Source of the DNA: Pegea sp. RAD2-039
Lineage: Eukaryota; Chordata; Thaliacea; Salpida; Salpidae
Assembly: GCA_034620365.1 (NCBI GenBank)
Contig: JAQGEQ010000071.1
Span: 1,612,001 to 1,676,000, forward strand
DNA: 64,000 nt
Direction of reading: 5' to 3'
The translations under genes were made by a program, and so were the position numbers. Below are positions 6,841 through 55,605 of this stretch, piece after piece. The notes beneath the pieces are model-generated. The model saw only the letters and a program-made list of their open reading frames with translations. It made no database searches and had not been told where the DNA came from. Each line of letters opens with the position of its first letter. Within the stretch, counting starts at the first letter, position 1.

Positions 6841-7690
6841 TAACAAACTAATAAGTTTCGCAAAACAGCTTGTAATATGACGCTGCTTACAGCAGCTAGA
6901 TGAAATTCGGAAAACAAATTTGCATCAAAGTTTTTACTACTTTAACATTTGTAAACGTTTTTATTCTCAGGCTCGTTTTAAGCGATTACGATAAAAACTA
7001 TCTGGAATTTTTCTCAGAACGATCATTTAGTTGACTTACTTTTGGTACAAAGACAATATATAAAACTTATCATATGGATTAGCAGAGAGATTAAATCAGA
7101 AATAAAATGTTAAAACTGTAAATTCTAAGTAGTCCTCCAAGCAATTTTGGCTGCAGTTCAAATACAACTTTACTGAAGGTAGTAAAATGAGACTAACAGA
7201 GCTCTACACTAAACCACGTGACAAGCGATAACACAACAGTAAATGCGCTTATCTCACAACGTAACTGTCATCGCTGTTCGTGGTTCAGTGTTACCTCCTC
7301 TTACTGCACTGTACCACCCTGAAAGGAGTTAAAACATAGAAACTCTAGATGACAATAATTGCGTAGAGCGCACGTGCAAAGCTTGTTTCTTTACTCCTTG
7401 ACAAAATAGAAGAGTTGTATGCTAACTCTATAAGTTTAACTGATATAAATGCGCACCTTTCCAACCCGGCGGTCTCACAGCTATGCTGGACTTACTTCAA
7501 AGCAAGCATTAACGGAAGTGATTTACTGAATGAATTATAACTTTCAGTGTCTTTGGTAGTGTTAAGATTACATGATCGAATTTTGATATCAGACTGACTA
7601 CTTTTTTGGTGGTCTTTAATTAGGTTACATATTCTTTTGCTAGATGACTATTTTGTTACCAGCAATATGAGAATAAAGAACATGACTTAC

Positions 7691-8018
7691 CGCTGGTAGT
7701 CTTGCTGGCAGTACATTTTTCCATTCCGCACATAACAAAACTTGATTAAAGGCTGGTTACAGACGCAACAACAAACACATGCTTCATGCCAAGTCATTTT
7801 GTCGACTTTCATGAAGAAACGATCGTAGATAGGTTTTCTACATCCTCCACATACACTAGGTGCTGATGTTGTGGCCAGGGTGGTGTTGCCTATTTGTATT
7901 TGTAACTGTTGTAGTTTTTGTTGGTTTAGTTGTTTTTGGCAAATTTGCATTTGTTCATTGTCACAAATTCCATTTGTACATGGGGGTTGGTTACTGTGTT
8001 CCTCTAAAAGTGTTCTTG
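7691..8018 (-). CDS. Lmx1: Lmx1 coding exon 2 with LIM domain 1
   Basis: Acceptor ..TTTCATGAGCAG|CAAG at 8019; donor CAGCG|GTAAGTC at 7690. Encodes residues 13-121: an acidic/Gln-rich linker with three extra cysteines (26, 31, 39) outside the domain, then the complete LIM1 with all eight zinc ligands. Residue C95 and C97 sit between ligands, giving an unusually Cys-dense run (VCCCVC) in the central knuckle. The exon stops right after the LIM1 Asp ligand, so LIM2 must lie in a separate exon. Confidence 0.92.
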
Positions 8019-10824
8019 CTGCTCATGAAATGAAAGAAATCAGTTATAAGAATCACTAAACAACTTCTATAAGATCTAGCATTTAAGCGATAACAAGTAA
8101 GATCGAACATGATACACGTGACCATAAATAGAAAATCAGTTTAATCAGAGACAAATAAAAATTGTAGTCTTCAATCTACAACAATTATATTATTTTCAGC
8201 TACTACTTAATACAAGTGAGTGAAATAGATATATTTATATATAATTTATCGCTCTTGTTATGACTTAATGTTCTGTTACTCTGGTGATAAGAACTAAATT
8301 TATCCTATAAACTGTTTAATATTGGCATTGGTGGTTGTTAGTTGTCATTATTTATAAGCTTAATTGACAAAATAAAAAACTAATTTCAAATTGTTGAGAT
8401 TTCAATAGGTTTGTCAAGCTGAAAAAATTAATTATACTTTTAAGAATTGTAAAAAATCGGTTGAAAAGGAGTATTTCTAAAATAGGAACAACTTATAAAC
8501 TAAAAATAAGCTCTTCAAAACAAATGTTCATTTCAGAATAAAAATAAACTGTAATATAAAAGATTTAGATTTACTTTAAACATCTCGTTGATTTGTTATG
8601 TAAACAATCAACATATCTATTTTAAACATGTTTTACATAACTTACATGTATTTATGAGTTTACAGCTAGAAAATTGCGTTTAATTTCTTTCACAATGGCC
8701 TAAAAGTTATTACCGTTACAAATAAACTATTAAAAAACTTAATGTCTGTTTTTGCTTAAATTTTCTATGATCTTTTGTTAAATAATCTAATAATTGAAGG
8801 ATGAATTTTGAAATTTCACATATTATAGCACTAGTAGTCATAGAAAAATCCACAAAAACGTTTTCAAGAAAATTGAGTTTAAGACGAGACTTATGGTGCC
8901 AATATCTCATGAAATTTTGTCTTATAGAAAATTATTATAACATGTCTTAGTGGGCTGTTGACGCTTTGATTAAATAACATCAAGCATTTCAATGATTTGA
9001 TACGATATAGGTGGCGAGATGGTTATCTTTTTTACTCTAATGTTAGTACATTATTTTATTAGTTTGGCGAGTTTTAACTAATTGTAATAAAATTTAGTGC
9101 TTATGGCTTTATGCTACCGATCAAAAGCTTATGAGTAAAAGTTTTAAATGCTAGCAACTGTATGCTAGTTTTGAAATCAGCCTGATTTGGAATACAAACT
9201 CCTAATGTTTAATTGTGCAATATGTGCCTTGAAGACTTTCTATAACCTAAATTAAAATCAGCCAAATCAATTTCAACCAAGAAATAATTGCTATCTGTAG
9301 TTAGTATCTAAAATTAAGTAGAATATCGAAGTTAAATAGTTTATAAAATTGCTGATCTATTTCAAGGCTGCATTAGTGAATAATCGATGCTAATAAGAAC
9401 TTAATAATTTTGTTTACTTAAGTAACGATTTTTCTAAAACTTAAATATTTCTTTATCGTGTTCGCATAAACTGTGACTTAAACAATTTTTGAACAAATGT
9501 CATTAGTTTGTAGCTAATATGTTTGCATTACACTAGTTTAAAAAACTTTTAGGGTTTACTGATACTCCCAAATAATCTGTGTCATAGATCTCCTGAAAAC
9601 TAAAAATAAACGTCAACTTAAAAAAAGTTTTTTTTTAAATCTGGACAAAACTTTCACAAACATGTCAACAGAAACTCCTAGCTTTAAGTAACATTTGATC
9701 ATAAAGATAAACGCCTATCAGTCAATAATGTTTAATAAACAATAATAAAAGATGACAGTATACAAGGTTTACGTTTAGTGATGCCAAAATTAAACTACGA
9801 AAAAATAAATAAAAACTAATCTCTAATATTATTGTATAACTAGCTACTGGCAGCTAATCTTAATGATTCGACAAAGTTTTCCATTTTAAGTCAAACGACT
9901 AATAATTTTAAGAAGTTTTGGCAGTCACCTAGTTTTAACTGTGAATAATAAAGCATGTACGTCAGTAAAAAATAGATTAAATCGATTAGTCACTTGTAAT
10001 GATTTTTTATAGAAACTAAATTTAAACATATGTCAGCATAATTTATTCATACAGAGTTATTATAAAACTATTATTAGCTGTTTATTAACGAAAAATTTAA
10101 CAAAACTGTTGTTAGACATCTAAAACACTAAATAATGGGCTTATCAACGTTTCTCAGCTCGTAAATGAGCTAAAAACAATAAACTGGCAGCAAACTTGTT
10201 CATCTCAATGATTAAAATATATTACAATTTTGTTGAATGAACTAAACTAATTTTATCTTGTAGGATCGTAAGCGTTTGGACATTTAAACCTTTTAAAAAC
10301 GAATTTACTAAATAAAGAGACGGGAAACACTGACTTGATCAGCTTGCTTCGTTTAAAAATTATAAAAAATGTTACTGAAAATACAAGTTGTATCCACAGT
10401 GTTAAATACTTCTGCAATTAATTCAAAATAATGCAGTTAACAAATATTTGTCAGGGAAAAGCTAACAGCAGTTTAAGTTAAAGCATTTATTTGTTCTATA
10501 TCTTTAAAATATCAGTAGGCTGTAGACAGATATAAATCAAACGAGTCGATGAAGTCGAAGTAATTTGCATTTAACTTGCTGAATACTGTTTTTGATCTTG
10601 TTTTTATATAGAGAAAGTCTGACACAGTTTAACCTCAACTATTACTTAATAAAGTTAATATTCATCTACTTTAGAGATATATGATAATTACTGTTTTAAG
10701 GGCATTTCATTTACGACCAAGTTATATAAAATATTGGTTAGTATTAAACAAACTGTGAAAATGAAAGGGAAAATTTCGTGTAAATACCTTCTTCGTTTAC
10801 TTGATCCTCTTCCATGTTGGTCAT
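7691..10824 (-). CDS. Lmx1: Lmx1-type LIM-homeobox transcription factor, 5' part (coding exons 1-2, continues off left edge)
   Basis: Two minus-strand exons join in frame: 10788-10824 (start codon, 12 codons plus 1 nt) and 7691-8018 (phase 1 in, phase 2 out), giving 121 residues. Residues 13-67 form a linker with a Gln-rich stretch (about 35-54). Residues 69-119 are a full LIM zinc-binding domain: C69, C72, H90, C93, C96, C99, C116, D119, spaced C-x2-C-x17-H-x2-C-x2-C-x2-C-x16-C-x2-D. The words SVCGGC, DRFFMKV, TWHEAC and YCQQDYQ match the first LIM domain of the LMX1A/LMX1B family better than other LIM-HD families I know. The family has two N-terminal LIM domains then a homeodomain and acts in the nucleus on A+T-rich sites in neural and dorsal patterning. 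The second exon ends at a strong donor (CG|GTAAGTC) just after LIM1. LIM2 and the homeodomain were not found in 1-7690, so this is a 5' fragment. Family call firm; full architecture inferred. Confidence 0.88.
8019..10787 (-). other. Lmx1: Lmx1 intron 1
   Basis: A 2.8 kb phase-1 intron bounded by GTATTTAC (donor, 10787 downward) and TTTCATGAGCAG (acceptor). Uniformly A+T-rich. I see no exon, RNA gene or repeat in it. Confidence 0.65.
10788..10824 (-). CDS. Lmx1: Lmx1 coding exon 1
   Basis: Starts with ATG at 10824 and encodes MTNMEEDQVNEE before the donor G|GTATTTAC, leaving phase 1. The next exon supplies CA to make Ala13 and stays open, which supports the join. The start has G at -3. A possible acceptor (AAGCAG) ends at 10833, so the exon could begin at 10832 with a few in-frame codons (E-E-A) before this ATG; then the ATG might not be the first start. 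Confidence 0.7.
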
Positions 10825-18999: not shown

Positions 19000-19400
19000 G
19001 TATAGCTTCCAGTAGGACCAAAAGGGTCCCGCACTTTTTTCTCTCCGACCTCAGGCGCGCCCTAAGCTGAGCAAACACTCAACCTTTTTCGATGACGGCC
19101 ATAATCGACGGGAAAGTGAGCTGAGTAGACGTTTGAAAGAAGTGTTAGATGTATGTAGAGTATCGCTACCCGGTACTGGTGTTTCTTCCTTAACAATAAA
19201 GCTGCTGATGAGAGGCTCGTATAAGCATGGTGAAGTAGTAGTAATTCAACTATGTCACTCTTATGCCCGTTGTGAAGAAGACCAGAAAAGATAAGAGCAG
19301 CTCAATTGTACTACAGTCAACGATTTCGATTGTGGCCGCATCAAAAACTACATAAAACCTGCCACAAAGTAAATAACGTCGATTCTGTTTAGGTGTGTCG
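19000..19400. promoter_or_regulatory. G+C-rich island in the desert
   Basis: A 400-bp block with motifs rare elsewhere in the window (GGCGCGCC at about 19054, CCCGGTACTGG at about 19169, several CGs). No long frame, no paired splice sites, no tRNA boxes. Candidate enhancer or promoter of a non-coding transcript. Confidence 0.2.
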
Positions 19401-28859: not shown

Positions 28860-29160
28860 CACGTAGAGGCGTGGGTTATTTACTTTCATGTTGGCTATCA
28901 CCAAATCACAAGTCACCTAACGCAACAGAGTTTAGCTGAGCGACCATCTAAATGCTTGTTAAGCGATTAGACTGTGTAGGTGGTAGTCTACCAAGTAACT
29001 TCAGCACGAAGCCTGAAAGTAACCCGATGTTAGTTGGTCCACAGGTGGTTTAAACTGATGATGCCGTTCCTGAAAAGGCGCAATTTCAGTCTTAGATGGC
29101 CGCAATAACGAAACTGAGCAGCTGCAACGCTATCTCAAAGCAACGAGAATTTGCTCAAAA
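28860..29160. promoter_or_regulatory. G+C-richer island
   Basis: About 300 bp close to 45% G+C by eye, with GCAGCTGC palindrome (about 29120), a short hairpin GGTAGTCTACC (about 28984) and CAGGTGG. No coding frame. Candidate enhancer. Confidence 0.2.
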
Positions 29161-31089: not shown

Positions 31090-31740
31090 ACTCCTAAACT
31101 ACAGCCAACAAGGGAGTGAGTTTTTAGCGAGAGACGGAAAAGTTAACAGCACTCATAAATTTTCTATGAAACTTGTGTGTACTTTTCTGCAACGATGAAA
31201 CGTCTTCAACTTCCAGTAGGTTGATTGTTTTTTATTCATGTTTAAATAGTTTTAAAATTTCAAAACTTTAAAGTAATCTTGACGTGAATTTTTTTTCTCT
31301 AATGAGATCACCATTTCGAGTTTCCTATTAAATATCTAAAAAAACTAGAATAAAAAATACACAGTTCAAAAACAAAGAGCTTTAAAAGTCACTTCCATTT
31401 AGTTTAAATGATTATTTAACACTTTCATTGTTTTCGTTTAAACGAATGTCGTAACAGAAAGTAAGAAGTAAATAAAAAAAATTATTGATGTAAGTAAAAA
31501 AAGATGCGTCATCAAAAGTATGACAGCACCGATGGTGGGCTGGTTGTTGGTGTCTTTGAAACACGGGAAAGAGTCTGCTGGCGTCACTACGGTTCCATCG
31601 TGTCGGCGTCGAAGTATATAAACAATTGCGTACCTTGTGTCATACGTTTTGGACTACTACCCAACCTGTATCTGAGAAAGGGTGGGTAACTTGTAATTCA
31701 CAGACTTTAAGTTGTAGTTGATGACGTAGAAGGTTTGAAA
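31090..31740. promoter_or_regulatory. Island with repeated CRE-like half sites
   Basis: Contains GCGTCATC (about 31505), GCGTCACT (about 31583), GGCGTCG (about 31604), TATATAAA (about 31617) and TGACGTAG (about 31721). The mix of CGTCA half sites with a TATA-like word could be a promoter, but no transcript is evident on either strand. Confidence 0.22.
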
Positions 31741-40399: not shown

Positions 40400-40443
40400 T
40401 CAGTGTGAAGTAGTACTGCTACCTCCAAGTGATAAAGATGCTT
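40400..40443 (-). CDS. Homeobox gene exon 18 (terminal)
   Basis: 44 nt after a 157-bp intron; acceptor AATCAACAG. Encodes EASLSLGGSSTTSH (the first codon is shared with exon 17) then TGA, directly followed by AATAAA. Chosen because it continues phase 1 and ends promptly. An internal GAG|GTAGCA could act as a donor, so a further exon is not excluded. Confidence 0.6.
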
Positions 40444-43400
40444 CTGTTGATTAGATAAAATGTTAAACTAATTTTTAGCAAACTCAAAAGTTTAGTAAAA
40501 TACTGAAGTAGAAATTGAATTTAATATTTGACCAAAGCGTTTAAATAAAAAAAAAGCGTTTATTCATAAAATTGAATCCAAGAGCACCCTTGATCCTTAC
40601 CTCCAGTGGGATATAAATTGATGTCCCGATGAGTGTCTCCTGGTTTTGATATATACTGATCCTCTGGAAGAAGAATATTAGGAGCATTTGTAGGAGAGAC
40701 CCTCCATTTAGCAACATGCAAATTATCATTGTTTGTTGCTTGCATAGCTTGATTGGAACAATGAAAGCTAGCCATAAGCGGTTGATTGTTGCCACTTAAT
40801 GTGTGAGCGATTTTACCTGTAAGCATGTAACATCAGTACTAACACAAATTTAATATTTATAATATTACGATCAAATATAATTATGTAAACGCTGATAGAA
40901 AATAATAATTTTTGTAATAAATATAATTGAACTTTAATGATAGATTAAACCATTAGGTAGATAGAAGGTTGATTGTTAACTTCAATCAGCAAGTCTTAAA
41001 TAATCAATTTTGGTTAGTCATATGCGAGGTGCTGTTCCTTAATTTGATGGATGTTAAAAACTAAGTCATCCTAATCACGTATCATATGTTTTTCAAAAAA
41101 TACAATTTCTAAAAGTTGACAGTAAGCACAAGTTTGCAAAATATTTCTTAGATTTTGATTGCTTTTTGCAGTGGATTTAATAACTTTAATTTTTACAACT
41201 GATTGTTGATAGTAATGATGTTAGTATTGGTTAAATATAAATTAATGCAAGTTTATTTTAAGTAACAAAGTACAACTTTACACATTTAGCAGTTTACGCT
41301 TTGTATAGAACTATTAAAAACTTTATGTTTAATGAATTCTAATTACTTAAGCTACAATTCCCATCACTGATAAGATATGACACGTAGATTTATGACTTTA
41401 AAATCTATTTTTTAACGGTATGTTAGATTTTGTCTATGCCCTATTTATTAGACTACGTCTTAAACATATATTTTTGTATATCTCTAACCAGATTTAATCT
41501 AGTATAAAATAAGTTTTGATAACTAATAATAAACTCTTGACAGGTTGATTGTAACGTTTCATGAATAAAACATAAATTTAAAGATTTAAATCATCACATC
41601 AAGATTTAAACTTAATCAATTGAAAGTTATCAGGTTATTTTTCGCGAAAACCATCAAGGTTTTTACCTCGTGCAGCTACTTAAACAATATTAGTGAATAT
41701 TCTATTAAACTCTGCAGTGATCAACTTTTTATGTCTTCTGTTGTCTACTCATTTACAACCTTTTCTTTTTTTAGTATAAAGTATTTCAAGTTCCAGTCTA
41801 TATTCTTCCACCTAATCTACCATCGATATTTTAAATCGACAAAAAGTTGAATTGCAGTCTGCTTTTTGACCTGATATCAAGCCGTAAAATGAATTTGATT
41901 TAATATAGCAAAAAATATATTAGTTTTATTTTATTTTAATCTAAGTAGGGATAAAGTTAGGAAAGAATGGTTTTGGCATTAAATATTACAAAATATAGCT
42001 TCAAAAAATAAACTATATTTCCCAAATAGTAAAACTTTTTTATAGATTTTAAAGAAAAATTTTTAAATTTCAAATTAAGTTATGTTTATTTGAAATTACT
42101 TAAAGATATTATTTATTTTAATATATTGTTGATTCTATTTCACAAAGAAACAAACAACAACAAATCTATTCATGCAAAAGAAAATATAACTAAAAAATGC
42201 TTTTTAATCATAAAAATGTAACCAAACAAATAGCTTTATTCATAAGACATTATTTATATATAAAACAATTATTTTAAATAATCTGTATTTGCAATCGTAA
42301 ATCTGTTAAGCTAACTAACTTTGGCTAACTAGTTTCATAAAAATATTTGCCACTATATTTTTTAAGTTTAATAAACAAAGGCTTATTAATTATATTTAGT
42401 AAGCTCAAAAACTATTTAGTTTTAAAATTATCACTTAAAAATGTGTCAATTAAGCTGTCAAAATATATTATTCTATCAAGTGTTGTATGTTTTTAGACTA
42501 GTTATTTTTCAATCTATTAGTTGGTCTCGTTAAACGTTTTAAAATTTTTATCTAAAAATAAATTTTAACTTATAGTTTGTTAAATCTAAGGTGTAAATTT
42601 AAATGGTGACAAAGTGATGAAATTGTTTTATCTTTCTTCTTCTTTTTGTAACTTTAAATCTGTACTTCAAAAGTCACTTCAATCATGCAAACACTTGTTA
42701 AATTAAATTTTGATTAAAACTGTTATACTGTTTTTAGTTGTTATTTTAATTAACAATCTGTTTTTTAGTTTCAAGTTTACTGTAAAATATAATTAAACAT
42801 ATATTTAATGTAGTTTGAAGAAAATGTATACAAGGCATTGGTTAAAGTAATGATTTATTGCTGCAGTTACAAACTTTTGACTTCTTGATATTGTGGAGCA
42901 AATTAGCTTCTTGTTGATAAAATCAAATTAAAAAAAAGTTATAAACGAAATAATAGAAGTAAATTAAACAAAATTATTTTGTGTAATCTTACCGGCAAAT
43001 TATGCTTTAACAAACAACTTCATTTTAACCAAATTTGCAAACTAATCACCTTGTAATCAAACTAGAGTTATACTGAATGAAAAAAGGTTTTATTTTTGTA
43101 GCTCATCAACAACAGTTTATGTCAATGTTTTAATTTCACGTTTATATTGATAACTTTCATTTTCTGACTTTTTTCAGTAAGAATCTGTATACAGCTTTAA
43201 AGAAACCTTTTATAAGCAATATGTAAAAATATACTTTTATATCTATGTGACTTTAATTAGTTACTAATTCTAAATCTTTATTTTTTAGCAACACTATTAT
43301 TCGAAAATTAGTATTAGTAAATAAATCAACTTCCTAGTCGCTTTTGTAATGATTAACTGTTCAACAGTCAATGAATTTACCTTCTTTGTTGTATGGATTG

Positions 43401-46400
43401 ACTATAATAGGAAGATTCTTGCGAAAACCATTGGCTTGTTTAGATTCAGGAGTAAGTAGTGGTTGAAATGACATTGAAGATGAAACTGGGCCTGGAATAA
43501 TGCCGTTCCTCGTGTCTGGAAGAAAGAAAACTATTATTGAATTTTTTTGTTGTGTGCTTATTAAATACATTTTTGAGAAGAACTATTTAAGAAGAAGTTT
43601 AATAAAATAATAAATACGAAAATATTATTTAAGACAAACTATTTAAGTAGTGAGTCAAAAAGATAAATCAGCTTCTTCTGGAGAAAAAATTGTTTTTTTT
43701 CTGCCTTTAATAAACTTTCTAAAGATATCTATATCATTAAATAATCGGAAGTAAATTTTGTAGTTGCCAATAAAATATGATGAGAAACAGAATTTCTGTA
43801 AACTTTTTAGTTCTATTTTCAGAAAACGTCAAGTAAAATCTTTCAATATAATGACAATTGATTACTTTGCTACCAGATGGTGTCTGCATTACATTAATTA
43901 TATGTTTGCTCGTTGGAGCTTTAATGTGTATTTCTTAAAGCAGGTGAATCCTGCGCAGCTTCCACAAATAAAAGTAAAGGTTTTTATGGGCATAAGTGCT
44001 AAATCGACCAATCTGGTGTTTCACATTTTTGTCATCAGCGTTTTAGTTGAAAGTTTTATTGATCTTCAAATTGAAGCTTTTATCGCAGCAGCAATAGAAC
44101 ATATGACTTGTCTTCTTTCAATAGTTTAATTCAGATATAAAGTTTATACATGACCAAGAACGATTAATGCAATTACTACTTCCTCACCTTGCATCATGAA
44201 AAGATTGTTGGCTTGAGGGTGATGACAGTGTATTGGAGGATTGTACTCACCAGTAGACAAGAACCCTGAATCAGGTGTGCCCTGTGGAACCTCTTTAACG
44301 GAATATTCCAAACCTGAATAATGAACTCACATCAGTAAAATTTTTTGAATAATTTACAATACAAGAGTTTTTATAGTTGGATGAATGTTTTAAGTTTAAT
44401 ATGGAAAAAGTTTAATGAAAATTAACTAGGACTTATATTACTAAAGAACGTTCTTAAGCTGTCACTTCTACTTATCAAACCAACATCATTTTTAATGACC
44501 TATTCTTTTCTAATGAAGGTTAGAAATGTATGGTTTTACTACACTATTATTATTATTTTTGCAACTAGCACTATAAATAATTAGAAAAATAAATAGGTAA
44601 AAATATTGATGGATTACAATCACCAAATATGATTCATAATAATATGAAACTGTGATTGATTGTTTTCGTAACTACTGTCTTCTTACTCAAAGTATCAATT
44701 ATAGTTTAACCTGATTGAAGATGAGACTGATACTGTCTACTCTGATTGTAGCTGTAATCGAAAGTATAAGTTGCTGATTTGCTATTGGGGTTTTTGTACT
44801 CGTGGTTGCTCCATTGCGCGTTCATAAGACCATCATTGACAAGAGAGACTTTAAAAAAATTTAAATTATTACAGAGAAGTTACTTAAAATCTCTGTTGTA
44901 AACAACTGAAATATCTACCTTGATTAACTGAATGATTTCCTGGAACTAGATTACTTTGATTCATGTAGGGTGGGTGGCGTGAATAAGTTGTGGCACCATA
45001 ATACGACGGCACAGAATGAGGCGAAGGATTGTTCCACATATAACCAGCAGTATGGCGTCCATTCATTCCACGAAATGAACGTTGAGGTCGAAACCCCCTC
45101 ATTCCTAACATACATTTACATCATCATATTTTACTTACACTGATTGACTTTATACATAAAATATTTTTCTGTTTTCAGCTTGATAACAGCAAAAGTTTCC
45201 AAAATAAAAATAAACTTGTGAAAGTTCATTTATAGTAAAACGTGCTAAAAGAACTTCAGTCGACTTATTCATCTCACAAATGTTTGGCTTTTAATTAAAC
45301 CAGATAATAATAGTTATCATAAAGTTTCATTATTTTGCCGAACTGTAACAGCAACTTCATAAAATTCATTTGACATATTTGTGGCTTAAATACGTCATAA
45401 TCTAAGTAAACACTAGGAGGAGCTATAGAGATAAATACAAAGCATTTTGTTAAGAATTTATCTTTGATATGTAATTAGATAAGTTGACAGGCGTCAATTT
45501 CTCAATATCCTTTGCGCCCATACAATTTTGTTACTAGTGTCATTCATAAAAGTTTTATTAATAAATTATTGACCAGAGATAAAGTTGCACTTAAAAAGTA
45601 CAAAATTTAAGTTAGAAAGAAATTCTTAAGAGTAACCATTTGACAGATGAGTTGAATGGTAAGGTGACTGTCGAAACGAGGACATAGCTGAAGCAAACCC
45701 AGCTGAGCGTGGATCATAATTAGGCCGACTGCCACTTGAGTATTTCACTGAAAATTAATTAATAATATTAATTCTGACTTTATTATACATAAAAAAGATG
45801 TTTTGCAAAAAAAATTTTCAAAGTTGTAATCTATAAACTATAAATTATCTATAAGTTTAATAAAAATGATTAATACCGTTGTTTCGATTTTTGATTGCTT
45901 CCTTTTTTCTAGCGGCTCTGGTGTTTTGGAACCAGACTTGAACTACTCGAAGCTTTAATTGTGTTGAAAAAGCTAACTCTTCGCGTTCCTAAACAAAAAC
46001 AAATAATATTATTTACAAATGTATGAATTGGGGTCTTAATATAATACATTTGTTAAATCCAAATCTATCTGGAAGTAAAAGTGCTTTAAGCTAGATATTT
46101 TGAAATATTTTGACAGAATTTAACCCACTCTTTTATTTGGTTTTTGGTTATGAGCAAAGAAGGTAGTAAGCTTATGCTTCTGGAAAGCATTTAGTCGTGT
46201 TCTTGGTCGTTTCGCTCTACACTCGTTCAATTGTGAATTTTCTGCTTCGTCTTCGATTATTCTTGATACAATGAAAAACAGTCGGTTAATTTCACATTCA
46301 CAAAATAACGATTTATTGATATGTCAACAAGCATTCAGTTCAGAATGACTAATTGGTATACAACATTCGTTTTGTTATCAAATAATCGTTTATAATGAAA

Positions 46401-49400
46401 TTAGTTTTGCAAAAATAAAAGGTTTAATTCATCTGCTAGTTTCAATGATGTTAATTTCCACTTAAAGATTAAAGACTGATGAAGAAAAAGAACAAATATT
46501 TCTACTTGCAAGCTGGAACATTCAAAAGGTGGAAAAATACTTTAATCTACTGTTGGTATTATCAAAGCATAACTGTATATGATGGTAGTCATAAAATTTG
46601 TTAAAACTTATTTCATGATTTACTTCAAACATTTTTTTTTTAATACTCTTTGCCATTAATCTTTAGTTAAGAAATATTCTGATGGGCTAAAAACTCTAAC
46701 CAACCTTTCACTTTTTTCCGATTGTGCTTTGTCAGATCTTGCTGGCGAGGAATTTCCAGACACTACAATTGTATTAGTTACATCTTCTCTTAAATAATAT
46801 TTACGTTTATTCTAACCTGAGCTCGGACTTTTAGATAGATTATTATCCATATGAATTTTTGGTGTTTCAAAACTGGCATCATTCATATTATGATAACCGT
46901 TATTACTCACAACCACATCGTTTTGATAGTCAGTTTGGTGTGGTAGCAGTACTTCACATGGTTGAAAGTTGAAATTACTCCGATGCGTAACAAAATTATC
47001 ATAATGAATGTTTACATTCATTGAAGGAAGTGTTTCAAAATTCTGTCAAATAAAACGTTAGTGAAAAAATGATGATGAAATATGAGATGAGAAACAAAAT
47101 TGCTGAAATACTTTTGAAATGTAAACGGTAGATCAATTTATTTTTGCAATAGTACGATAAAAACACCGAGATTATTTTTATTATGGGCTTTTAGCAAGAA
47201 ATCATACCGAAGCAATACTTTAAAAAGCAAAGTAGAAATAGTAAATTAGGTATATAAGAACAAAACATATCTAATATTCAATTTATTTTATGTTTCTTAT
47301 GAAAACTTGTTACACAATTTGAGAAATTCAAATTCACTTTTAAATGCAAAGAAGCTTTTGAACAAAACGTTGCATTTCCGTTTGGAACTAAATTGTGATT
47401 TTCCTGCTGGTTGCTGCTCGTCAACACATTTAATTGATTTATGTTGTTGGTCGGTTTTGCTGTATCTTCGGATATGTATGGAACATTGTTGTCAGTTTTA
47501 CATAAAATACTCGACTCAGCATTCACACTGAAAAACCACTATAGTTGAAGCTTATTGACAATATTAGTGGTTTGGCTCAGCACATTATAAGTTTGATTCA
47601 CCCATTCAATAACCTCAATCACTCGGACTAATTAATCTAAATTAAGATTTTGAAAACGTCTACAAGCACATTCTTCTAATTTAACTTTAAATTAATTGTA
47701 AATATATACTTGAATATAGATGAAACGTGGTGGTAATAAAGGTGGTAATAAAAGTAAACTAATATAAAGTTCATTATTTTTGATGTTATCAAAGTTTAGA
47801 ATAAAAATAAATCAATTTATCAAAAATCAGTAGCAACTACTGTTAATGATTTCTTTTGAGTATTTTTATTAATAATCGAAAACATTGCTGCAGCAAAAAC
47901 GAAAAATAGAATCTTACTTGTTCTCAATCTTTTCTTTATCAGAGGATAACAAAAAACTACCCGTAAGACCACTTGAAGTGCTTGTTTCTTCACGAAAATT
48001 ATGTTAATTAGCAAAGTTTTAGAAAAACTATCTTTAGTAAGACTTACTTATGATGGGACTACCTTGGTGCGATCCAGTAAAAACTGGAATAGATGAAGCC
48101 GAGCTAACAGCTTCAAAACTTGTTGAAAATTCTGAATTTGAGTTGGAAAGAGAAGTTTCATCACACTGAAAATCTGCTGCCAAATGTGTACTCTCTGAAT
48201 TAATTAAACAAATTTCGCCACTGTGTTTCGATGTAGACACGGTTTCGAAAGTCTGTCTATGACCATCAGACAAAAGATAGGAACTTTCTTTTTCTTTTTC
48301 ATCTTGTTTATTTTTAGGATAAGTAAAAACATCAGAAGAGACTGTTTTGTGAGTGGAATATATATTTTCATTTGGTTGGTGAGTATTTAAAGTATTATTT
48401 CCAAGAGATAACGTTTGTTTTGCTTCTTCTATTGGTGATCTTGTTAAGCTGTGGTATCTTGAGTCTTCAGTACATTTTGAATAACCGAGGATTCTGCAAA
48501 TTAATTCCAAAAATCACAGCTTATTAAAATATATTATACATTTTTAAAGTCCGCGATTAAAGTACTTCTTTTATGTTTCAATTCAAGAAGTAAATTGGTT
48601 TTAAATATTAAAATGAGAGTATTAAATCGTATAATTAACACACATCTATTAGGATTTAATAAAAAATGAAGCAGCTTAACAAACACATAAAACAATTCTT
48701 TGATAATAGTGTCAATAAATTACGAAAAACTTTGTAAAAATCTTAAAAGCAGTTTTTACTACCTGTGATTAGTTTGGTTTTGATTGCAAATTGATCTAGC
48801 ATCAAAGCTCGGTAAATTTGGTAGCTCTAGAAAAAAAAAAACTCATTTTATGAAAATCTTAAAGTCTTAAGAAACTCAGCAGAGCACTAACCATGATGAG
48901 AATCACATTGAGAAGCAAATCTTATACTGGATGAAATACAGGCAGTTGAAGACTCTTCAAGAGGTTGATAGTCACCGTTGCTCAGCAAGTTATGTTTCAG
49001 TTCTTGTTGCCCGTGAAATTGTTTTGAATGATAGTTTGAGTTTGAACTTGCGGGTTCATGTTCTTTAGGAAAATCGATGTAACTATCTTCATTTTGTAAA
49101 CTTAGTTTGCAATTATTCGGGTACGACAAATCAATTTCATTTTGAAAAGGAGAATCTTGGTAAGGTTTGTCAAATGTAGATTGTAGATGAATTCCATTGG
49201 TCAATTGAGTTGGCATAAGAGCTGAATTATGAAAGTGACCACTGGGACCCCGATACGATTGATCAGTTGATTGAAAACAGCTAACTTCAATAGAGTTGTT
49301 ATTTAGCTTTGCCATTCTTTTATCAGTTTTGTTTAGCAACTGAATTTTTGGTAAACGTTTTGTATGATAAGCAGCGTTAAAGTCTGAGCTTAGTGAATAA

Positions 49401-52400
49401 TTACCAGCTGATAAGTTTCCAGAAGTATACTCAATAACGTTAGTATCATAAGCAGCATTGCTTTTAAAACACTGAGAATGCTTTTCTTGGTTTCTGAAAA
49501 CAAATCAAAGGTTTTCATTAATTCTTATGGAATCAGCTGTATAATGTTTGTAAATTTATCTTATGTATTAATCAGCAGTTGAATATAAGATGTAAAAGAC
49601 GGTTTACATACATATGTAGTTTTTCTACTGTTTATTACATGTTGAAACTTTTTTACAAAACAACTAAAACTTTATTAAAGTTGAAAATACATATTTCTAA
49701 TTTATCAATGTTTCGAATAATTAAAATATATAATAATATAATAATAATAATTGTAAATAATGTTGAATTCACTTGAAAAAAGGAAACAGTCATATAAAAT
49801 ATTAATAATTTTGTTATGTTTGAAGCATCAAAAATATAAACTCAAATATAATATTTCTTATGATTATATACTATTTACCTTAAAAATAAAAAAAACATAA
49901 AAACTTTCTACTTTATTTTCAAGAATGAACTATCAAAAGCTATCAACATTTATCGGAAAGACGGAAAAAGTATGTGACAGTGTAGTAGAGTTTGCTACAT
50001 TAGATAGATATAATAAAATAAAAACTGAAGCAGAAAATACTTTAGAAATTTAAATATGTCAATTCCTCTCAACTATTGCATTAATAAAAGGATAACATTA
50101 TAATTCTAAATGGTTGATAAAATAATTATAGTTTTATTATTTAACAACTTTCTCTTCCTACTTCAAGCTAAGTATGGAAATAGTATATGCATATAGGTTT
50201 TATATCTTCAAGCAATATAAGTTTCATATTTACTTGGCTGGCTACACAGTGCAACCATTTTATGGCTAATTGTTAAATGTTTCATTGGTCAAAATTTAGC
50301 CAATGTAATGATAATTATGATTGATAAGCAATGCTTTTTGAACACAGCTGTATATAACTAAGTATATCTCCTGTACCATTAATTACACTTAGTGAGGAGC
50401 TTTTCATTATGATTTTTGTAAACACTATAAATTAGTCACAATTACTATCTAAAACTTAAACTCCTAAAAGTTATACTAGTTTATAATCAAACCTTTAAAA
50501 TAATTTTTCGAACAATTTGATTTCTAACATTTTAAAATCAGACATCGAGCAATATTACAAGCTGTTCGGGCAAAAATAAAAGTCATAAATGGTCGTTCAG
50601 TCTGTAAGAATCTGTTCAAGCTGCTTTACAAAGAGAATGAGCAGCAACAGGCCAAGAGACGTGAAACGCATGTAAATAAACAAATGACAACCTGCCTTAT
50701 TCACCAATCCTAAACATGACCGTGTCATCTATCATTACTGAGCCGCACACACCTGTCCCTACAACCTTTTTTAGTCGACGAACTTTTAATGAACTTACCG
50801 CTTTTTCACCGCTTAGATTGGCGACATGGTGTACTCACATTCAACGAGATATCAGTAAAGATTTGCTCGTACGATTTGAAGCTATGGTGGGTTGTAGCAA
50901 GTGGACAGGTGTGATAGTTTGTATCATAACAAAAAATTTCTTTTCAAGTTTTTTTTGCCCTCTCAATGACCTAAGTAGTAAGTTAGCTGGTAATAAAATT
51001 CTCGGAGACTAGTTGCTCACTTTCTTTAGCATTTTTTGTAAAAATAGAAATGGGTTTGGTTCTCTAACCAAAATAAGAGTTGAAAAAATGGCCGTGTATC
51101 TAAGATCCAAGGTAAAGGATTAAGATTTTAATGATGAACAGTTTATTTAGACTTGCAGTTAAATCCTTAAAATATAATAATAACCAAAATTATAGATTAA
51201 GTATTTCTTCTAAAATCACAAAAGTAAAGATGCTAAAATTAGGAAAAAATCTATTACTGGTAATAACAAAGAAACAAATTCATCTAAAAATTTTTAGAAT
51301 AAAATTTCTTTTTATCTTTTCAAGCAGTTTTAAAACTAATTAATTTTAAAAAAAATACCTAATTAGCTTCAATGACTGAAACACTTCTGTTACTTATGTA
51401 CGCACTGTCTGTAGTATAATAAAGATGCAATCTACCTTAGCTATCAAAAGTTACAATAAAAGAAAAAAATAATTTTTTTCCACTAAATCATATTAAAATA
51501 CTTTTTAGAAAACTGTTAATTTCTACTTATCTTCCTAGTATTTAATCATTAACACCATTTTTAGTGCGAAATACAAAATATTTTTCACTGTTGATTAAAA
51601 AAAATAAACCGTAAGTTTTAGTTGCTTAACTTTTTTCAAGTTATTATTCTTCAAAGTCTTTTGATGATAAAATGAACAAATATCAAATATTATATTCCAT
51701 GTTAACCATAAGTTTCACAACAAGAAAAAACACAATAACTTTTTGTACAGTTAAAAACTATGACACATGTTTACTTCAATACCTTTTCCACTTTGGCACA
51801 ATCTGTTATTCGGACTTTAAATGCATCTAATGAGTAGAAAATACTTCAACAAAGCAAAATTTTCAATTATTAAGACTATGATCTACCATTTGATGATTCT
51901 TTCAATTAAACCTTACACCTGAGCAAGTAACCACTTCTGTTTGAAATGAGAGTTTTAAATAAAGAATAAAGTCTCCCAGATGTATAGAATGCATTAATAG
52001 TAATTTAAATTGTAGACGTCCTTAGGAGTGAAGTAAAGACAAAGTTACTAAAACTTAGTTTGTTGTTATATGGCTACAAGCCTGCTTGATATTTCATGAC
52101 CAAAACCGGACGTTAAATATTTATTGGCAAGCTTATTTCTGCGTACAGCTGTACATATCACCTAGGGTTATCACTAAAAATGAACTCCTGATAAGTTTCG
52201 TAAAGATTGTTGTGATTAAACACAGCTATGCTATATTTGAACTTTCTATACATTGCAAAAATCAAAGCATTAAGCTTACGTAGCAATATTTAACGACTTC
52301 AGTTTTTGAATATATCAATCTTTAGATAATGATCAAGAACGTCATCAAAAACTTTTCGACTTTACATTACAAATTCTATAAAAATTTCTTTTTCAGCTTG

Positions 52401-55400
52401 ACACAGTAAGTAATGAACTACTTCAGCAGTTTCACGTTTATAATCTTAATCTTAGTTAGGATAAACAATTAAGTAGATTTGGTACATTGCCTAACATCTA
52501 CCGCCAGTTGTTGTTTAACCACAAAACTTTAACTGAGCTGTAACTTAAGAACTTTTAGAATTTATTTGATTTTTTGTATCGTTCTCATCAAAATCATTTT
52601 CAAATATTTATGTAACTTGTTTTGCAAATGTTTGTAAAATTTTGTTGATTAGCTAATTTCAATAGAAGAGATCATATAGATAAGTCTTGAGAGGTGTATG
52701 ATGTTTACGTTTCGATCAAGCAAATAATAAAAAAATTAAACCAACTGGTAAACAATCTAGATTTTAATGCTTGTACATTAATTAAATCAATTAAAACTGG
52801 TTACAATGTCTAAAAGGCGTAAAATTCAAAAATACAGATTTTTATTATTGAATATCAAGTTCAATTAATTTTGATCTTTCTCTGACAGGCATTTGTTCTG
52901 CCAATTATATGATTAAGAGTAATTCATAATATTTTAACAAAGTTATCAACCAGATCAAAGTTATAAAAAAATATTTTCAGGCTTGGTTAAAAAACTTGTC
53001 TATATCTTCCCTAAACTTATTGGTCGTTGAAAGCAAGTCTGTGTAAGGCGTTAGACTACCACAGTTAAGAAAATAAGCAAGATGATTGATGACAACATTC
53101 AAGTTTAGTATATCAATGTTATAAGATATAAAACCATTATTTATTCATTTACATCAATATTAAATTTGTCACTTTAAATATTCATCAATTTAAAGTTGTT
53201 TAACTCTTTTTTGCAGTAAGACAATATCTTCTTTGCTTTAAGTGTTATTCGATTATTACAAAAGATTAAAAGTTCAAATTTTAACAAAAAAATTTGTGGC
53301 TTCAGAATTCGATAACAACAAAGGATAATTTTTTTTAATCTCTGGTTATTTTGGTCAGGTTTTTTAATTCTTTTAACAATTTTATAAAATATGCTCACTT
53401 TGCTTAAAAAATTCAGAATTTTCTACGTTTCTAGATTTTTAACTAAACTTTATAAGTTAAAAAAAATATGTGTATATAACAAAAGCTAATATAATTTTTG
53501 AAAGATAACTGAGAGATAGATTGAAGCCTGAAAATTACACTAATGTCAGTTTAAAATAATTGAATTGATTTGTTAATTTAAACTATTTCATGTTGCGATC
53601 ACAAACTTGCTCATATTAGAAATATGTTGGCTTTAATATCTGAAATGAAAACGTGCAGTAATTATTGGATAGAACTTTAAATGAATCACCTATTTTTCAT
53701 GTGAAAGCCATTTTATGGAAACCTAACATCTGGTAGTTCTAAAATAGAGATGTAATTTTTACCAGATGCTATTTGTTAAAGAGTATTTTAGATTTGCTGC
53801 TTTTCAAATAAAGTCATGTCCTTTATTGATACAATTTCATCTCACAGTAATAATTTTAAATTACGAATAGAATATTGGTAAAAAAATAAAACCATGAAAG
53901 TGTTTTAGTATCGGCAACTATCGCCTACCACCTTTAAGTTATTCTTGTTCCAATATTTTATTGTTTTGATCAGAAGCTAATAATATTGAACAAACAAAAC
54001 GCCGTCTTGAAAATGTTACCTCTTCATAAGCATCTGTTCAGTTTTCTACTAAGACGCTTATCTGACATATGTCAATTAATTAATGGCAATATTAAACAGT
54101 TAATAAATTGAAGTTAAATAAGAATGAAAAGAATATGGTCTAACATCTTAAGAAAATAAGATGCTGTTGGATGTATAGTAAAGTGGTTACTTCATTTTTT
54201 ACAATCCGAAAGTTTTGCGAATAAATCCAAAAATAGTCTTTTTATAAGATTATTACAATTTTTTATATCTTAAAATTTCATATCTTTAAATACATTTTTC
54301 GGACTTAAAAAATATAAGCAGCCATGTTATGAGCATATAAACGACAAAAGTCAACCAACTGCATGGTTAAAACGTAGAAAAAAAAATTATTTTTCCCATT
54401 AAGCTAATACCAGATACATGAACAGACAGAAGAAATTGAGAAGAGCTTTTGAAAAAATAAAGTTCTGCTGTAAATTATTTCACCCTGGCATTTATTTGGT
54501 ATGTATTTAGTGATCCATTGAAACACAGGAAATTAATAAATAAATTTCAATAAACCCATTTTAGTCTAACTGCTTTAAATTGAATAATCTTCAAGACTTT
54601 AGTAAACTATTGCTTTGATAAAAAGTCAATAAATTTTTTGCCTTTTCTTATAAAATCAAAATTTCAATCGATAGAAAGTAATTTATGCATAGTGGAAATA
54701 GAAAAACTTACAAATTTGTTTGATGTTGTAGATCATTTTTTACTTCCATTTTAACAGAAGATGAATCATTTTTCTTGTGATTAGTTGATTCAACGGTTAG
54801 GATCTTCTTGTCACTTGTAATAACATTCTTTTCCTACAAAATCAAGTTATGCTAATATATTTATAACATTCATAAAATAAGTACAATTAGCTTATAAAGT
54901 TTTAATCTCTGGAATAACTTTTCTTTTTCAAAGTTTCTGCTAGTATCACTTTCATTGTAACAAATATTTAATAGCAGAGTTGTAAAATCAATAAAAATGA
55001 TCAAAATATAAAAGTACTTTTACACATAAAGAGGTATATATTGATTATCAATTGAAGCAAATGCAGTGAAAGTTCAGTGATAAAAATTAAACTTGAAACT
55101 AACTTCTAAGTTTTGTAAGACTGAAAAGTACTAAAATCAAAAAAAGGTTATTGAAACAAAAATTTGTAACTAATGCATTTCTTTTTTATTTTTTTAGTTA
55201 CAACTAAATATTCAAATGATATATATACTATTTAAGCTGTTAAAACAATAGAGAAACATTAAAAACCTCTAAAGTAAAGACTTAGTTTCAATTTTAGTGC
55301 CGGTATTTATTGAAAAAAAAAACTAATCTAAGTAAGTTTTATATTCAGATCTAACAAATCTTGAAACTAAAAACATAAACCTTGTTCTTGGTGATTGAAG

Positions 55401-55605
55401 GTACCAAGAGATAATCTTTACAATTTTAAGTGAACAGTTCAAACTAAGAAGCTACTTTAACAAATATTCATCAAGTATAAAATATTGATTTAGTATTAGA
55501 CATCACCTTTTCATTTTTTTCACTTATTTTTGTTGTATTTCTTAGCGGTTTTATTTCTCCTTCAAAGATTTCGGAAAATGTTTTAGCATCGGATGTTAGC
55601 TCCAT
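40400..55605 (-). CDS. Orphan homeodomain transcription factor, 18 coding exons, complete
   Basis: Exons (minus strand): 55507-55605, 54712-54833, 48892-49493, 48763-48826, 48048-48493, 47918-47987, 47314-47527, 46817-47042, 46705-46762, 46129-46261, 45877-45988, 45637-45747, 44919-45104, 44711-44848, 44188-44313, 43381-43515, 40601-40816, 40400-40443. They sum to 3102 nt, one open frame of 1033 residues plus TGA, with GT/AG at every junction. Residues 1-633 are polar, Ser/Asn/Gln-rich. Residues 650-709 are a canonical 60-residue homeodomain (R5, L16, F20, L40, W48, F49, Q50, N51, R53; helix 3 RVVQVWFQNTRAARKK). Residues 710-1033 are Tyr/Ser/Pro/Asn-rich, with an Arg/Gly patch at the start of exon 13. 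Q50/N51 predict TAAT-type DNA sites. The homeodomain shares KRPRT, KP, REELA and RVVQVWFQN with LIM-class domains (Lmx1, Lhx1/5) and similar words with ZFHX, but no LIM domain or zinc finger is present. Not assigned to a family. An upstream non-coding exon is possible. Confidence 0.85.
40601..40816 (-). CDS. Homeobox gene exon 17 (phase 1-1)
   Basis: 216 nt, residues 948-1019, after a 2.56-kb intron. Acceptor GCTTACAG, donor GGAG|GTAAGG. Asn/Pro/His-rich. Symmetric phase 1-1. Confidence 0.8.
40817..43380 (-). other. Homeobox gene intron 16
   Basis: 2.56 kb, phase 1, very A+T-rich. Short open frames on the plus strand at 41620-41850 look like chance. I see no exon or repeat. Confidence 0.6.
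43381..43515 (-). CDS. Homeobox gene exon 16 (phase 1-1)
   Basis: 135 nt, residues 903-947. Acceptor TTTCTTCCAG, donor GAAG|GTAAAT. Pro/Ser-rich, no domain recognised. Confidence 0.8.
43516..44187. other. Homeobox gene intron 15, with a long open frame on the opposite strand
   Basis: 672-bp phase-1 intron. The plus strand is open from 43764 to 44129; its first ATG is at 43851 (92 residues). A plus-strand acceptor TATTTTCAG (43822) and donor AAGCAG|GTGAAT (43940) frame part of it. It contains hydrophobic and aromatic residues but no known domain. Treated as unproven. Confidence 0.3.
44188..44313 (-). CDS. Homeobox gene exon 15 (phase 1-1, internal alternative donor)
   Basis: 126 nt, residues 861-902. 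Acceptor TTATTCAG, donor CAAG|GTGAGG at 44187. A second strong donor, CTG|GTGAGTAC, lies inside at 44250 in the same phase; its use would drop exactly 21 residues. Confidence 0.8.
44711..44848 (-). CDS. Homeobox gene exon 14 (phase 1-1)
   Basis: 138 nt, residues 815-860, after a 70-bp intron. Acceptor TTTTTTTAAAG, donor CAG|GTTAAA. Ends in a Tyr/Gln/Ser-rich stretch (YTFDYSYNQSRQYQ). Symmetric phase 1-1. Confidence 0.8.
44919..45104 (-). CDS. Homeobox gene exon 13 (phase 1-1, RG/Tyr-rich)
   Basis: 186 nt, residues 753-814. Begins GMRGFRPQRSFRGMNGRH, an Arg/Gly-rich patch, then Tyr/Pro/Ser-rich sequence. Donor CAAG|GTAGAT. Symmetric phase 1-1. Confidence 0.82.
45637..45747 (-). CDS. Homeobox gene exon 12 (phase 1-1)
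   Basis: 111 nt, residues 716-752. Acceptor TTTTCAG, donor AATG|GTTACT. Tyr/Ser/Pro-rich. Length is a multiple of three and both ends are phase 1, so it could be skipped in frame. Confidence 0.8.
45877..45988 (-). CDS. Homeobox gene exon 11 (homeodomain C-terminal half)
   Basis: 112 nt, residues 679-715. Acceptor TTTGTTTAG. Carries homeodomain positions 30-60: REELA, then helix 3 with RVVQVWFQN. Position 50 is Gln, 51 Asn, 53 Arg, 54 Ala. A basic tail (ARKKEAIKNR) may act in nuclear import. Donor ACG|GTATTA, phase 1. Confidence 0.92.
46129..46261 (-). CDS. Homeobox gene exon 10 (homeodomain N-terminal half)
   Basis: 133 nt, residues 634-678. An acidic lead-in is followed by homeodomain positions 1-29: basic arm AKRPRTR, helix 1 and the loop to helix 2 (FFAHNQKPNKR). 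The donor AGA|GTGGGT lies between homeodomain positions 29 and 30, phase 0. Confidence 0.9.
46705..46762 (-). CDS. Homeobox gene exon 9
   Basis: 58 nt, residues 615-633, separated from exon 8 by a 54-bp intron. Ser/Lys-rich linker ahead of the homeodomain. Donor AAAG|GTTGGT. Phase 2 out fits exon 10. Confidence 0.75.
46817..47042 (-). CDS. Homeobox gene exon 8
   Basis: 226 nt, residues 540-614. Acceptor TTTGACAG, donor CAG|GTTAGA, phase 0 in and 1 out. Rich in Asn, His and Asp; ends with a Ser/Pro stretch (SKSPSSG). Confidence 0.8.
47314..47527 (-). CDS. Homeobox gene exon 7
   Basis: 214 nt, residues 468-539. Acceptor TTTTTCAG, donor TGT|GTAACA, phase 0 out. Asn/Gln/Ser-rich, no domain recognised. 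Confidence 0.75.
47729..47752 (+). repeat. 12-bp exact tandem duplication
   Basis: GGTGGTAATAAA twice head to tail, inside intron 6 of the homeobox gene. Likely a replication-slippage product. Confidence 0.75.
47918..47987 (-). CDS. Homeobox gene exon 6 (small)
   Basis: 70 nt between a 60-bp and a 390-bp intron. Without it exon 5 meets a stop in exon 7; with it the frame is kept (phase 1 in, phase 2 out). Encodes TSTSSGLTGSFLLSSDKEK. Donor CAA|GTAAGA is strong, acceptor GTGAAG is weaker. Confidence 0.7.
48048..48493 (-). CDS. Homeobox gene exon 5
   Basis: 446 nt, residues 296-444. Acceptor AATTTGCAG, donor ATAA|GTAAGTC. Ser/Thr-rich with an acidic/Lys segment near its middle (KNKQDEKEKESS). 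Leaves phase 1. Confidence 0.85.
48763..48826 (-). CDS. Homeobox gene exon 4
   Basis: 64 nt, residues 275-295. Preceded by a 65-bp intron with a long T-run ending in CTAG; donor CAG|GTAGTA. Enters in phase 1 and leaves in phase 2, matching both neighbours. Confidence 0.75.
48892..49493 (-). CDS. Homeobox gene exon 3 (largest)
   Basis: 602 nt, open throughout, residues 74-274. Acceptor TTTTCAG, donor ATG|GTTAGT. Composition is rich in Ser, Asn, Gln and His, as in disordered activation regions. No domain recognised. Confidence 0.85.
49724..49751 (+). repeat. (ATA)n-type microsatellite
   Basis: Imperfect run of ATA/TAA units in intron 2 of the homeobox gene. Confidence 0.6.
50540..50930. promoter_or_regulatory. 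Intronic G+C-richer island with inverted CACACCTGTCC boxes
   Basis: CACACCTGTCC at 50748-50758 and its exact reverse complement GGACAGGTGTG at 50903-50913 lie 144 bp apart. The second extends to AGGTGTGA, the T-box half site; both include the E-box CACCTG/CAGGTG bound by Snail/ZEB-type factors. A plus-strand frame is open for 98 codons (50716-51012) without a recognised domain. Candidate intronic enhancer of the homeobox gene; factor identity is inferred. Confidence 0.35.
54712..54833 (-). CDS. Homeobox gene exon 2
   Basis: Acceptor TTTGTAG, donor TT|GTAAGT. Encodes residues 34-73, Lys/Ser/Asn-rich, with no known domain. Joins exon 1 in phase 0 and leaves phase 2 for exon 3. Confidence 0.75.
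55507..55605 (-). CDS. Homeobox gene exon 1 (start)
   Basis: Begins MELTSDAKTF and has 33 codons, ending in phase 0 at AAG|GTGATG. The frame stays open upstream of the ATG to a possible acceptor (AACATAG at about 55622), so a 5' UTR exon may precede. The ATG context is weak at -3 but has G at +4. Confidence 0.65.

What the first reader, a model, noticed from the sequence alone, without database searches (positions are those of the whole stretch)
40400..55605. Orphan LIM-class-like homeodomain in a 1033-residue protein without LIM domains
Eighteen exons join in one frame around a fully canonical homeodomain. The homeodomain reads closest to LIM-class domains (KRPRT, KP, REELA, RVVQVWFQN), with some ZFHX likeness, yet the long flanks have no LIM domain, zinc finger or other known module. 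This could be an undescribed or lineage-specific homeobox family.
Basis: partly seen in the sequence, partly recalled or inferred. Interest (0 to 1): 0.75.

Follow-up and report, generated by a model that had tools for sequence, protein, structure and literature searches.

The report
LIM-less sister of tunicate Lmx gene
A sea-squirt-type animal appears to carry, right beside its normal Lmx developmental control gene, a fast-changing relative that kept the DNA-binding homeodomain but shows no sign of the LIM protein-docking domains that define this gene class.

Summary
On the minus strand, 18 GT-AG exons (55605-40400) join in one frame around an intact homeodomain; the predicted frame scores best of six in 17 of 18 exons (16 of 18 if stops are ignored). 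Pfam finds no other domain. I found no convincing LIM or zinc-finger signature in the gene or in 77 kb upstream of it.

The "orphan, undescribed family" reading is not the best one. The homeodomain is closest in identity to Lmx (54% to the genome's own Lmx). It is split at index 28, phase 0; of 33 resolved split homeodomains only it and that Lmx use this position. The Lmx gene, with two LIM domains, homeodomain and Lmx-type C-terminus, lies about 32 kb downstream on the same strand; its first LIM exon is inside this window (7690-8022).

The genome is a tunicate (Ciona-type spliced leader, marginal GH6 match, Hox set by eye). Ciona is published to have two Lmx1 genes, both with LIM domains. Best explanation: a tandem Lmx duplicate that lost its LIM domains, and so its LDB-docking surface, and diverged fast. 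Homeodomain trees agree only weakly, no transcript was available, and the function is inferred.

The parts
55507..55605 (-). exon 1, with the predicted start ATG
   Evidence: frame best of six; 5' end unproven
54712..54833 (-). exon 2; one diverged copy of this stretch plus intron flank lies on contig C67
48892..49493 (-). exon 3
48763..48826 (-). exon 4
48048..48493 (-). exon 5
47918..47987 (-). exon 6
47338..47527 (-). exon 7 (an alternative donor would add 8 codons)
46817..47042 (-). exon 8
46705..46762 (-). exon 9
46129..46261 (-). exon 10; homeodomain first half at 46212-46129 (28 codons)
45989..46128 (-). phase-0 intron inside the homeodomain, same position and phase as in the neighbouring Lmx gene
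45877..45988 (-). exon 11; homeodomain second half at 45988-45902
45637..45747 (-). exon 12
44919..45104 (-). exon 13
44711..44848 (-). exon 14
   Evidence: narrowly not the best frame
44188..44313 (-). exon 15
43381..43515 (-). exon 16
   Evidence: narrowly not the best frame
40601..40816 (-). exon 17
40400..40443 (-). exon 18, with the stop codon (weakest exon)
   Evidence: not the best frame
7690..8022 (-). first LIM exon of the neighbouring Lmx gene; its second LIM domain, homeodomain and C-terminus lie below the window at C1:1597448-1605191; its 5' exons were not located

Best explanation
This is an Lmx-derived homeobox gene of a tunicate: a tandem duplicate of the adjacent Lmx LIM-homeobox gene that no longer encodes LIM domains and has long, probably disordered flanks. 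Shown here: an intact homeodomain; a homeodomain intron position otherwise seen here only in the Lmx gene; tandem position on the same strand; no LIM signature found in the gene or upstream. Inferred: the protein is a nuclear DNA-binding factor that reads Lmx-like TAAT sites (residues 5, 47, 50, 51 and 54 equal those of LMX1A). Without LIM domains it should not recruit LDB/CLIM co-factors, so it would work through its Ser/Asn-rich flanks, or compete with Lmx for sites. It may be the counterpart of one of the two Lmx1 genes of Ciona (Lmx1 and Lmx1-related); that was not testable.
For: Of 35 other homeodomains compared, the highest identity is to the genome's own Lmx (31/57, 54%), then LMX1A (29/57, 51%). 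Intron at homeodomain index 28, phase 0, in 2 of 33 resolved split homeodomains: this gene and Lmx; the other 31 sit at index 43 (14, one of them, L057, a doubtful join), 45 (12), 41 (2), 50 (2), 32 (1). PMC2828406 (passages and section 6) states that Lmx homeodomains carry two conserved introns, the first shared by cnidarian and placozoan Lmx. The neighbour has two LIM stretches (whole-protein 3e-20), a homeodomain (1.4e-17), and 51 of 57 homeodomain residues equal to LMX1A. No second LIM-bearing Lmx among the 23 matches. No convincing LIM in 77 kb upstream of exon 1 (nearest other Pfam LIM on this contig at 2.36 Mb). 19-row tree: this gene + Lmx 81/73; LIM-class homeodomains with this one 95/94 starred. 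PDB search: LMX1A second of 70 with 46.5 bits.
Against: LHX4 slightly outscores LMX1A in the PDB search (47.5 bits; DUX4 42.6 over two domains, ISL1 42.5, LHX9 38.5, ZFHX3 33.9), and the nearest rows by tree path are LHX3 and LHX4. In the 36-row tree its sister is a ZFHX homeodomain (83/15), and holding it with Lmx, LHX3/4 or Isl is not rejected (AU p 0.378, 0.325, 0.37); LHX1/3/4 is not rejected in the 19-row tree (p 0.135). In a genome search with the whole protein the best outside match over the homeodomain is the unsplit Isl exon (37%, 1.6e-5); the Lmx half-exons do not reach E 0.1 there. The second Lmx homeodomain intron is absent. No convincing similarity to Lmx outside the homeodomain. 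No transcript, no orthologue and no Ciona sequence was available. Function is inference.
Confidence: 0.72

Rival explanations
1. It is a true Lmx LIM-homeodomain gene whose LIM exons lie upstream and were missed because they are split, diverged or in an unassembled stretch.
For: The neighbour's second LIM domain is split over two exons and is absent from the Pfam genome scan, so a miss is possible in principle. The 5' end of the model is unproven, and a finger cut by an intron would escape the patterns.
Against: Half-finger patterns of the kind that caught the neighbour's split LIM2, and low-stringency tblastn with the neighbour's LIM1 and LIM2 (best E 0.56), found nothing convincing in 93 kb covering the gene and 77 kb upstream. 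From about 14.4 kb upstream of exon 1 another gene runs on the other strand, an aminotransferase by eye. Eleven exons up to the homeodomain already encode about 640 residues, and the whole protein has no C..C pair.
Confidence: 0.1
2. It is an old, separate LIM-like or ZFHX-derived homeobox gene (a genuine orphan family) that sits next to Lmx by chance.
For: In the 36-row tree it pairs with one ZFHX homeodomain at 83/15 and sits inside a LIM + ZFHX group at 97/94 starred. Its end branch is long (1.33).
Against: The two own ZFHX homeodomains that have introns are split at index 45, not 28; the other two are unsplit. No zinc-finger pattern on this strand of the window. Adjacency to Lmx plus the shared intron position would need coincidence.
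Confidence: 0.12
3. It is a decaying duplicate or a computed join of unrelated exons rather than a working gene.
For: Fast divergence; loss of domains; exon 2 has a diverged copy elsewhere.
Against: 1025 codons without an internal stop, all introns GT-AG, 17 of 18 exons best in the predicted frame (16 of 18 with stops neutral), and 13 of the 14 homeodomain positions listed kept as in LMX1A.
Confidence: 0.06

Closest known systems
Lmx gene of this genome and human LMX1A
   Same: Homeodomain 54% and 51% identical; same residues at homeodomain positions 5, 6, 25, 31, 44, 46-51, 53 and 54; same phase-0 intron at index 28 as the genome's own Lmx; tandem on the same strand
   Different: No LIM domain found; lacks the second homeodomain intron of the own Lmx; lacks the C-terminal PIDRL-type motif seen in the neighbour (its presence in vertebrate LMX1 is recalled); about 640 residues of unrelated N-terminal part; Ala for Lys at homeodomain position 55
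Ciona Lmx1 and Lmx1-related (KY21.Chr9.606 and KY21.Chr9.611)
   Same: Two Lmx genes in a tunicate, probably linked (passages of PMC12752508 and PMC11001920; linkage inferred from the gene-model numbers)
Nematostella Lmx with one LIM domain
   Same: Lmx gene with reduced LIM content (PMC2828406, passages)
   Different: Keeps one LIM domain; the one here shows none and sits beside a normal Lmx
ZFHX homeodomain a of this genome (C44, L032)
   Same: 26/57 identical; sister in the 36-row tree, 83/15
   Different: Homeodomain intron at index 45; one of four homeodomains on C44; not in tandem with Lmx

Membership tests
LIM homeobox class | Two LIM domains N-terminal to the homeodomain (definition in PMC2211742, passage) | tested here: not met
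   No LIM in Pfam, none by pattern in the window gene, nothing convincing by pattern or tblastn in the gene and 77 kb upstream
Lmx family | Homeodomain sequence groups with Lmx | tested here: inconclusive
   Best identity is to Lmx; 81/73 in a 19-row tree; 90/87 for a group that also holds a ZFHX row in the 36-row tree; other placements not rejected
Lmx family | First conserved Lmx homeodomain intron | tested here: met
   Index 28, phase 0, identical to the genome's own Lmx; 2 of 33 resolved split homeodomains. That this is the intron of PMC2828406 figure 2b is inferred; figures are not held
Lmx family | Second conserved Lmx homeodomain intron | tested here: not met
   Exon 11 runs through that point; the neighbour Lmx has an intron there. 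PMC2828406 says one intron is also lost in Nematostella and C. elegans
Lmx family | C-terminal PIDRL-type motif (recalled as an Lmx feature) | tested here: not met
   Present in the neighbour, absent from this protein
Lmx family | Location consistent with tandem duplication from Lmx (supporting, not defining) | tested here: met
   Same strand, about 32 kb upstream of the Lmx LIM1 exon
ZFHX (zinc-finger homeobox) | C2H2 zinc fingers with homeodomains | tested here: not met
   No C2H2 pattern on this strand of the window, none in Pfam
Ortholog of Ciona Lmx1 or Lmx1-related | Sequence orthology | not testable with these tools
   No Ciona protein or genome was at hand; one published C. robusta Lmx1-related primer is absent from this genome at up to 2 mismatches

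The most novel reading that the evidence does not exclude
A chordate LIM-homeobox gene that shed both LIM domains yet stayed under selection beside its intact parent, producing an LDB-independent factor that binds the same sites and modulates or opposes Lmx. [quoted passage not shown]
Probability: 0.35. Interest if true: 0.65.

Novelty: new variant of a known kind. Interest (0 to 1): 0.45.

Why it matters
Homeobox classes are recognised partly by their partner domains. PMC2211742 (passage) names LIM-domain loss as one possible reason why LIM-class homeodomains do not always form one group in trees. A LIM-less Lmx duplicate beside an intact Lmx would be a concrete example in a chordate, and a natural test of what the LIM/LDB part adds to Lmx function in roof plate or notochord, where Ciona Lmx1 and Lmx1-related are reported to be expressed (PMC12752508, passage).

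Tried and rejected
Nematode, insect and other origins were considered from the low GC (28.6% over 297,824 fetched bases) and the 105.7 Mb size. The nematode SL1 family gave no match, but nothing rang in the controls either, so that says little. TTAGGG arrays (77 pattern matches), a GH6 match just over the cut-off (27.5 against 27 bits), the Ciona spliced leader and the Hox set read by eye settled on a tunicate. Hox, Isl, Lhx2/9, ZFHX and other family labels of own-genome loci are recalled or judged by eye, except where a PDB hit supports them (LHX9; LMX1A). A search for papers by assembly size gave 3 papers, none about a genome of this kind. The human LMX1B splice variant that I recalled as marking the same intron was not in the 10 of 70 papers listed and is not used as evidence. 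Structure prediction was not run, because the protein is spliced and is not read letter for letter from the window. The ribosomal RNA search failed twice by machine error.

Literature on LIM-less Lmx genes: I saw none described in the listings (20 of 1003; 25 of 56; 7 of 7; 20 of 30; 12 of 92; 0 found), as titles and starts of abstracts. Passages were read in PMC11001920, PMC12752508, PMC2828406 (also its section 6), PMC2211742 and, for the spliced leader, PMC7986045. Most subscription papers are not in that library, so this does not show that none is in print.

Full report
Observation. The window is C1:1612001-1676000 of a 105.7-Mb genome in 387 contigs. On its minus strand, 18 exons from 55605 to 40400 join into 1025 codons with 17 GT-AG introns in continuous phase. 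The homeodomain (residues 643-699) covers the whole Pfam profile (E 2e-14) and is the only family above its cut-off. With codon scores from 45 mechanical ORFs of other homeobox loci (9269 codons), the predicted frame is the best of six in 17 of 18 exons; exon 18 (44 bases) is the miss. That score punishes stops and the exons were chosen to be open, so I repeated it with stops neutral: best in 16 of 18, with narrow misses at exons 14 and 16. Exons 1, 2, 17 and 18 are set apart by long introns or are short and are the least secure.

LIM domains. The protein has no C..C pair at all. The only LIM exon found in the window is at 7690-8022, on the same strand but about 32 kb downstream (Pfam 2.9e-13). 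In the genome scan (28 LIM matches from 42 candidates) the nearest other LIM on this contig is at 2.36 Mb. Because that scan misses split LIM domains (it missed the neighbour's LIM2), I searched 93 kb, the gene plus 77 kb upstream of exon 1, with half-finger patterns and low-stringency tblastn. A half-finger pattern of this kind had caught the neighbour's split LIM2. The patterns gave one loose half-pattern hit without LIM context, and tblastn gave scattered weak matches (best E 0.56 for LIM queries). In the window as a whole the best LIM match other than the LIM1 exon is E 0.023 at 4272-4156, far downstream of this gene and without a LIM pattern. About 14.4 kb upstream of exon 1 other genes begin; by eye they read as an aminotransferase, a coiled-coil protein, DNA polymerase delta and tubulin cofactor D (names recalled, not searched). 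A few short stretches with threshold-level coding scores lie in between; none matched a LIM pattern.

The neighbour. Reading on from the LIM exon, the same strand carries a second LIM domain split over two exons, a homeodomain, and a C-terminus ending TPIDRLMFMQNNYFRT. The joined protein gives two LIM stretches (whole-protein 3e-20) and a homeodomain (1.4e-17) in Pfam, and 51 of 57 homeodomain residues equal human LMX1A. It looks like an ordinary Lmx gene, though I did not locate its exons upstream of LIM1. A whole-genome search with it gave 23 matches at E up to 1; nine are this gene itself, one is the window gene's second homeodomain half (61%, E 0.067), and none shows another LIM-bearing Lmx.

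Kinship. The homeodomain of the window gene is 31/57 identical to the own Lmx, 29/57 to LMX1A, 27/57 to LHX4 and LHX3, and 26/57 to ISL1 and to one own ZFHX homeodomain. In PDB, 70 sequences match at E up to 0.001 (60 shown); LHX4 is first with 47.5 bits, LMX1A second with 46.5, DUX4 42.6 summed over two domains, ISL1 42.5. Trees of 57 columns are weak. With 36 rows the gene lies in a LIM + ZFHX group (97/94 starred), inside a group with Lmx and one ZFHX homeodomain (90/87), and pairs with the latter at 83/15. Holding it with Lmx, with LHX3/4 or with Isl is not rejected (AU p 0.378, 0.325, 0.37). With 19 rows, after dropping 17 (all 4 ZFHX, both DUX and 11 own PRD- or ANTP-like rows), it joins Lmx at 81/73 and the LIM-class homeodomains at 95/94 starred; LHX1/3/4 is still not rejected (p 0.135). 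Three reference rows were recalled from memory. A genome search with the whole protein gave 18 matches: 15 are the gene itself, one is the exon-2 copy on C67, and two are the Isl exon (37%) and a Hox-like exon (33%) over the homeodomain; the short Lmx half-exons do not reach E 0.1 there.

Intron. Sequence alone does not settle it, so I catalogued homeodomain introns. The family search gave 71 matches; 67 of these places lie in loci that I held (the window, L001-L067). From them 33 split homeodomains could be joined with splice sites, duplicates removed. Introns fall at index 43 phase 0 (14), 45 phase 0 (12), 41 phase 2 (2), 50 phase 2 (2), 32 phase 0 (1) and 28 phase 0 (2). The two at 28 are the Lmx neighbour and the window gene. 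L057 is a doubtful join (score 23.6). Others were not resolved by the script (for example L014, L033, L036, L044, L047, L059, L061); L051 (Lhx2/9) reads by eye at 45 and L059 near 30. PMC2828406 (passages and section 6) reports two conserved introns in Lmx homeodomains, the first shared with cnidarian and placozoan Lmx, one lost in Nematostella and C. elegans. The window gene keeps the first and lacks the second; that index 28 is the published first intron is inferred from the own Lmx, since figures are not held.

The animal. The Ciona spliced leader ATTCTATTTGAATAAG (given in PMC7986045, passage) followed by GT occurs 259 times within one mismatch, with 1 in the reversed control, partly in an array of about 199-bp period on C4. 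TTAGGG arrays, a GH6 match just over its cut-off (E 1.2e-4; among animals known to me only from tunicate cellulose synthase) and a Hox/ParaHox set that I read by eye as including Hox12/13-like genes agree on a tunicate. One C. robusta Lmx1-related primer is absent at up to 2 mismatches, so it is probably another species.

Interpretation. Ciona has two Lmx1 genes, KY21.Chr9.606 and KY21.Chr9.611, said to carry two LIM domains each, with roof-plate and notochord expression (passages of PMC12752508 and PMC11001920). A linked pair may therefore be old in tunicates, and the window gene could be the counterpart of one member, without LIM domains. This orthology is a guess: no named tunicate sequence was held. 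A new tandem duplication in this lineage is equally open.

Function (inferred). Residues at homeodomain positions 5, 47, 50, 51 and 54 equal those of LMX1A, so similar TAAT-type sites are expected (established knowledge of homeodomains). [quoted passage not shown] Without them the protein should act alone, through flanks rich in Ser and Asn (24% S+N over the whole protein), or compete with Lmx. Simple patterns for eh1, CtBP and WRPW repression motifs found nothing. By strict definition it is not a LIM-class gene, since the defining LIM domains were looked for and not found; it is best called an Lmx-derived, LIM-less homeobox gene.

Noticed in passing
54625-54823 and L077 (C67:185046-185250): Exon 2 and the start of the next intron have one diverged copy elsewhere in the genome (82-84% identity), with an in-frame 6-base gap in the coding part; the genome search listed no further copy.
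   Followed up: partly
G000 C4:1135044-1142219: Array of the Ciona-type spliced leader with about 199-bp spacing; other copies are scattered over many contigs.
   Followed up: no
L004 and L006 (C235), L017 and L045 (C18), L034 (C371), L049 (C265), L050 (C283): Hox-like genes are spread over several contigs, with two posterior ones 22 kb apart on opposite strands of C235; family labels are my recall.
   Followed up: no
genome-wide homeobox matches: Among LIM-homeodomains I recognised only Isl, Lhx2/9 and Lmx; no Lhx1/5, Lhx3/4 or Lhx6/8 was seen, though split homeodomains may hide them and only 67 of 71 match places were looked at.
   Followed up: no
L059 (C260:297744): A homeodomain with an odd third helix (TWMQNRRAR) and, by eye, two introns inside the homeodomain.
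   Followed up: no
about 2990-3700, 19000-19850 and 29000-31700: Patches with open frames on both strands and coding-like scores but no clear gene; possibly repeats.
   Followed up: no
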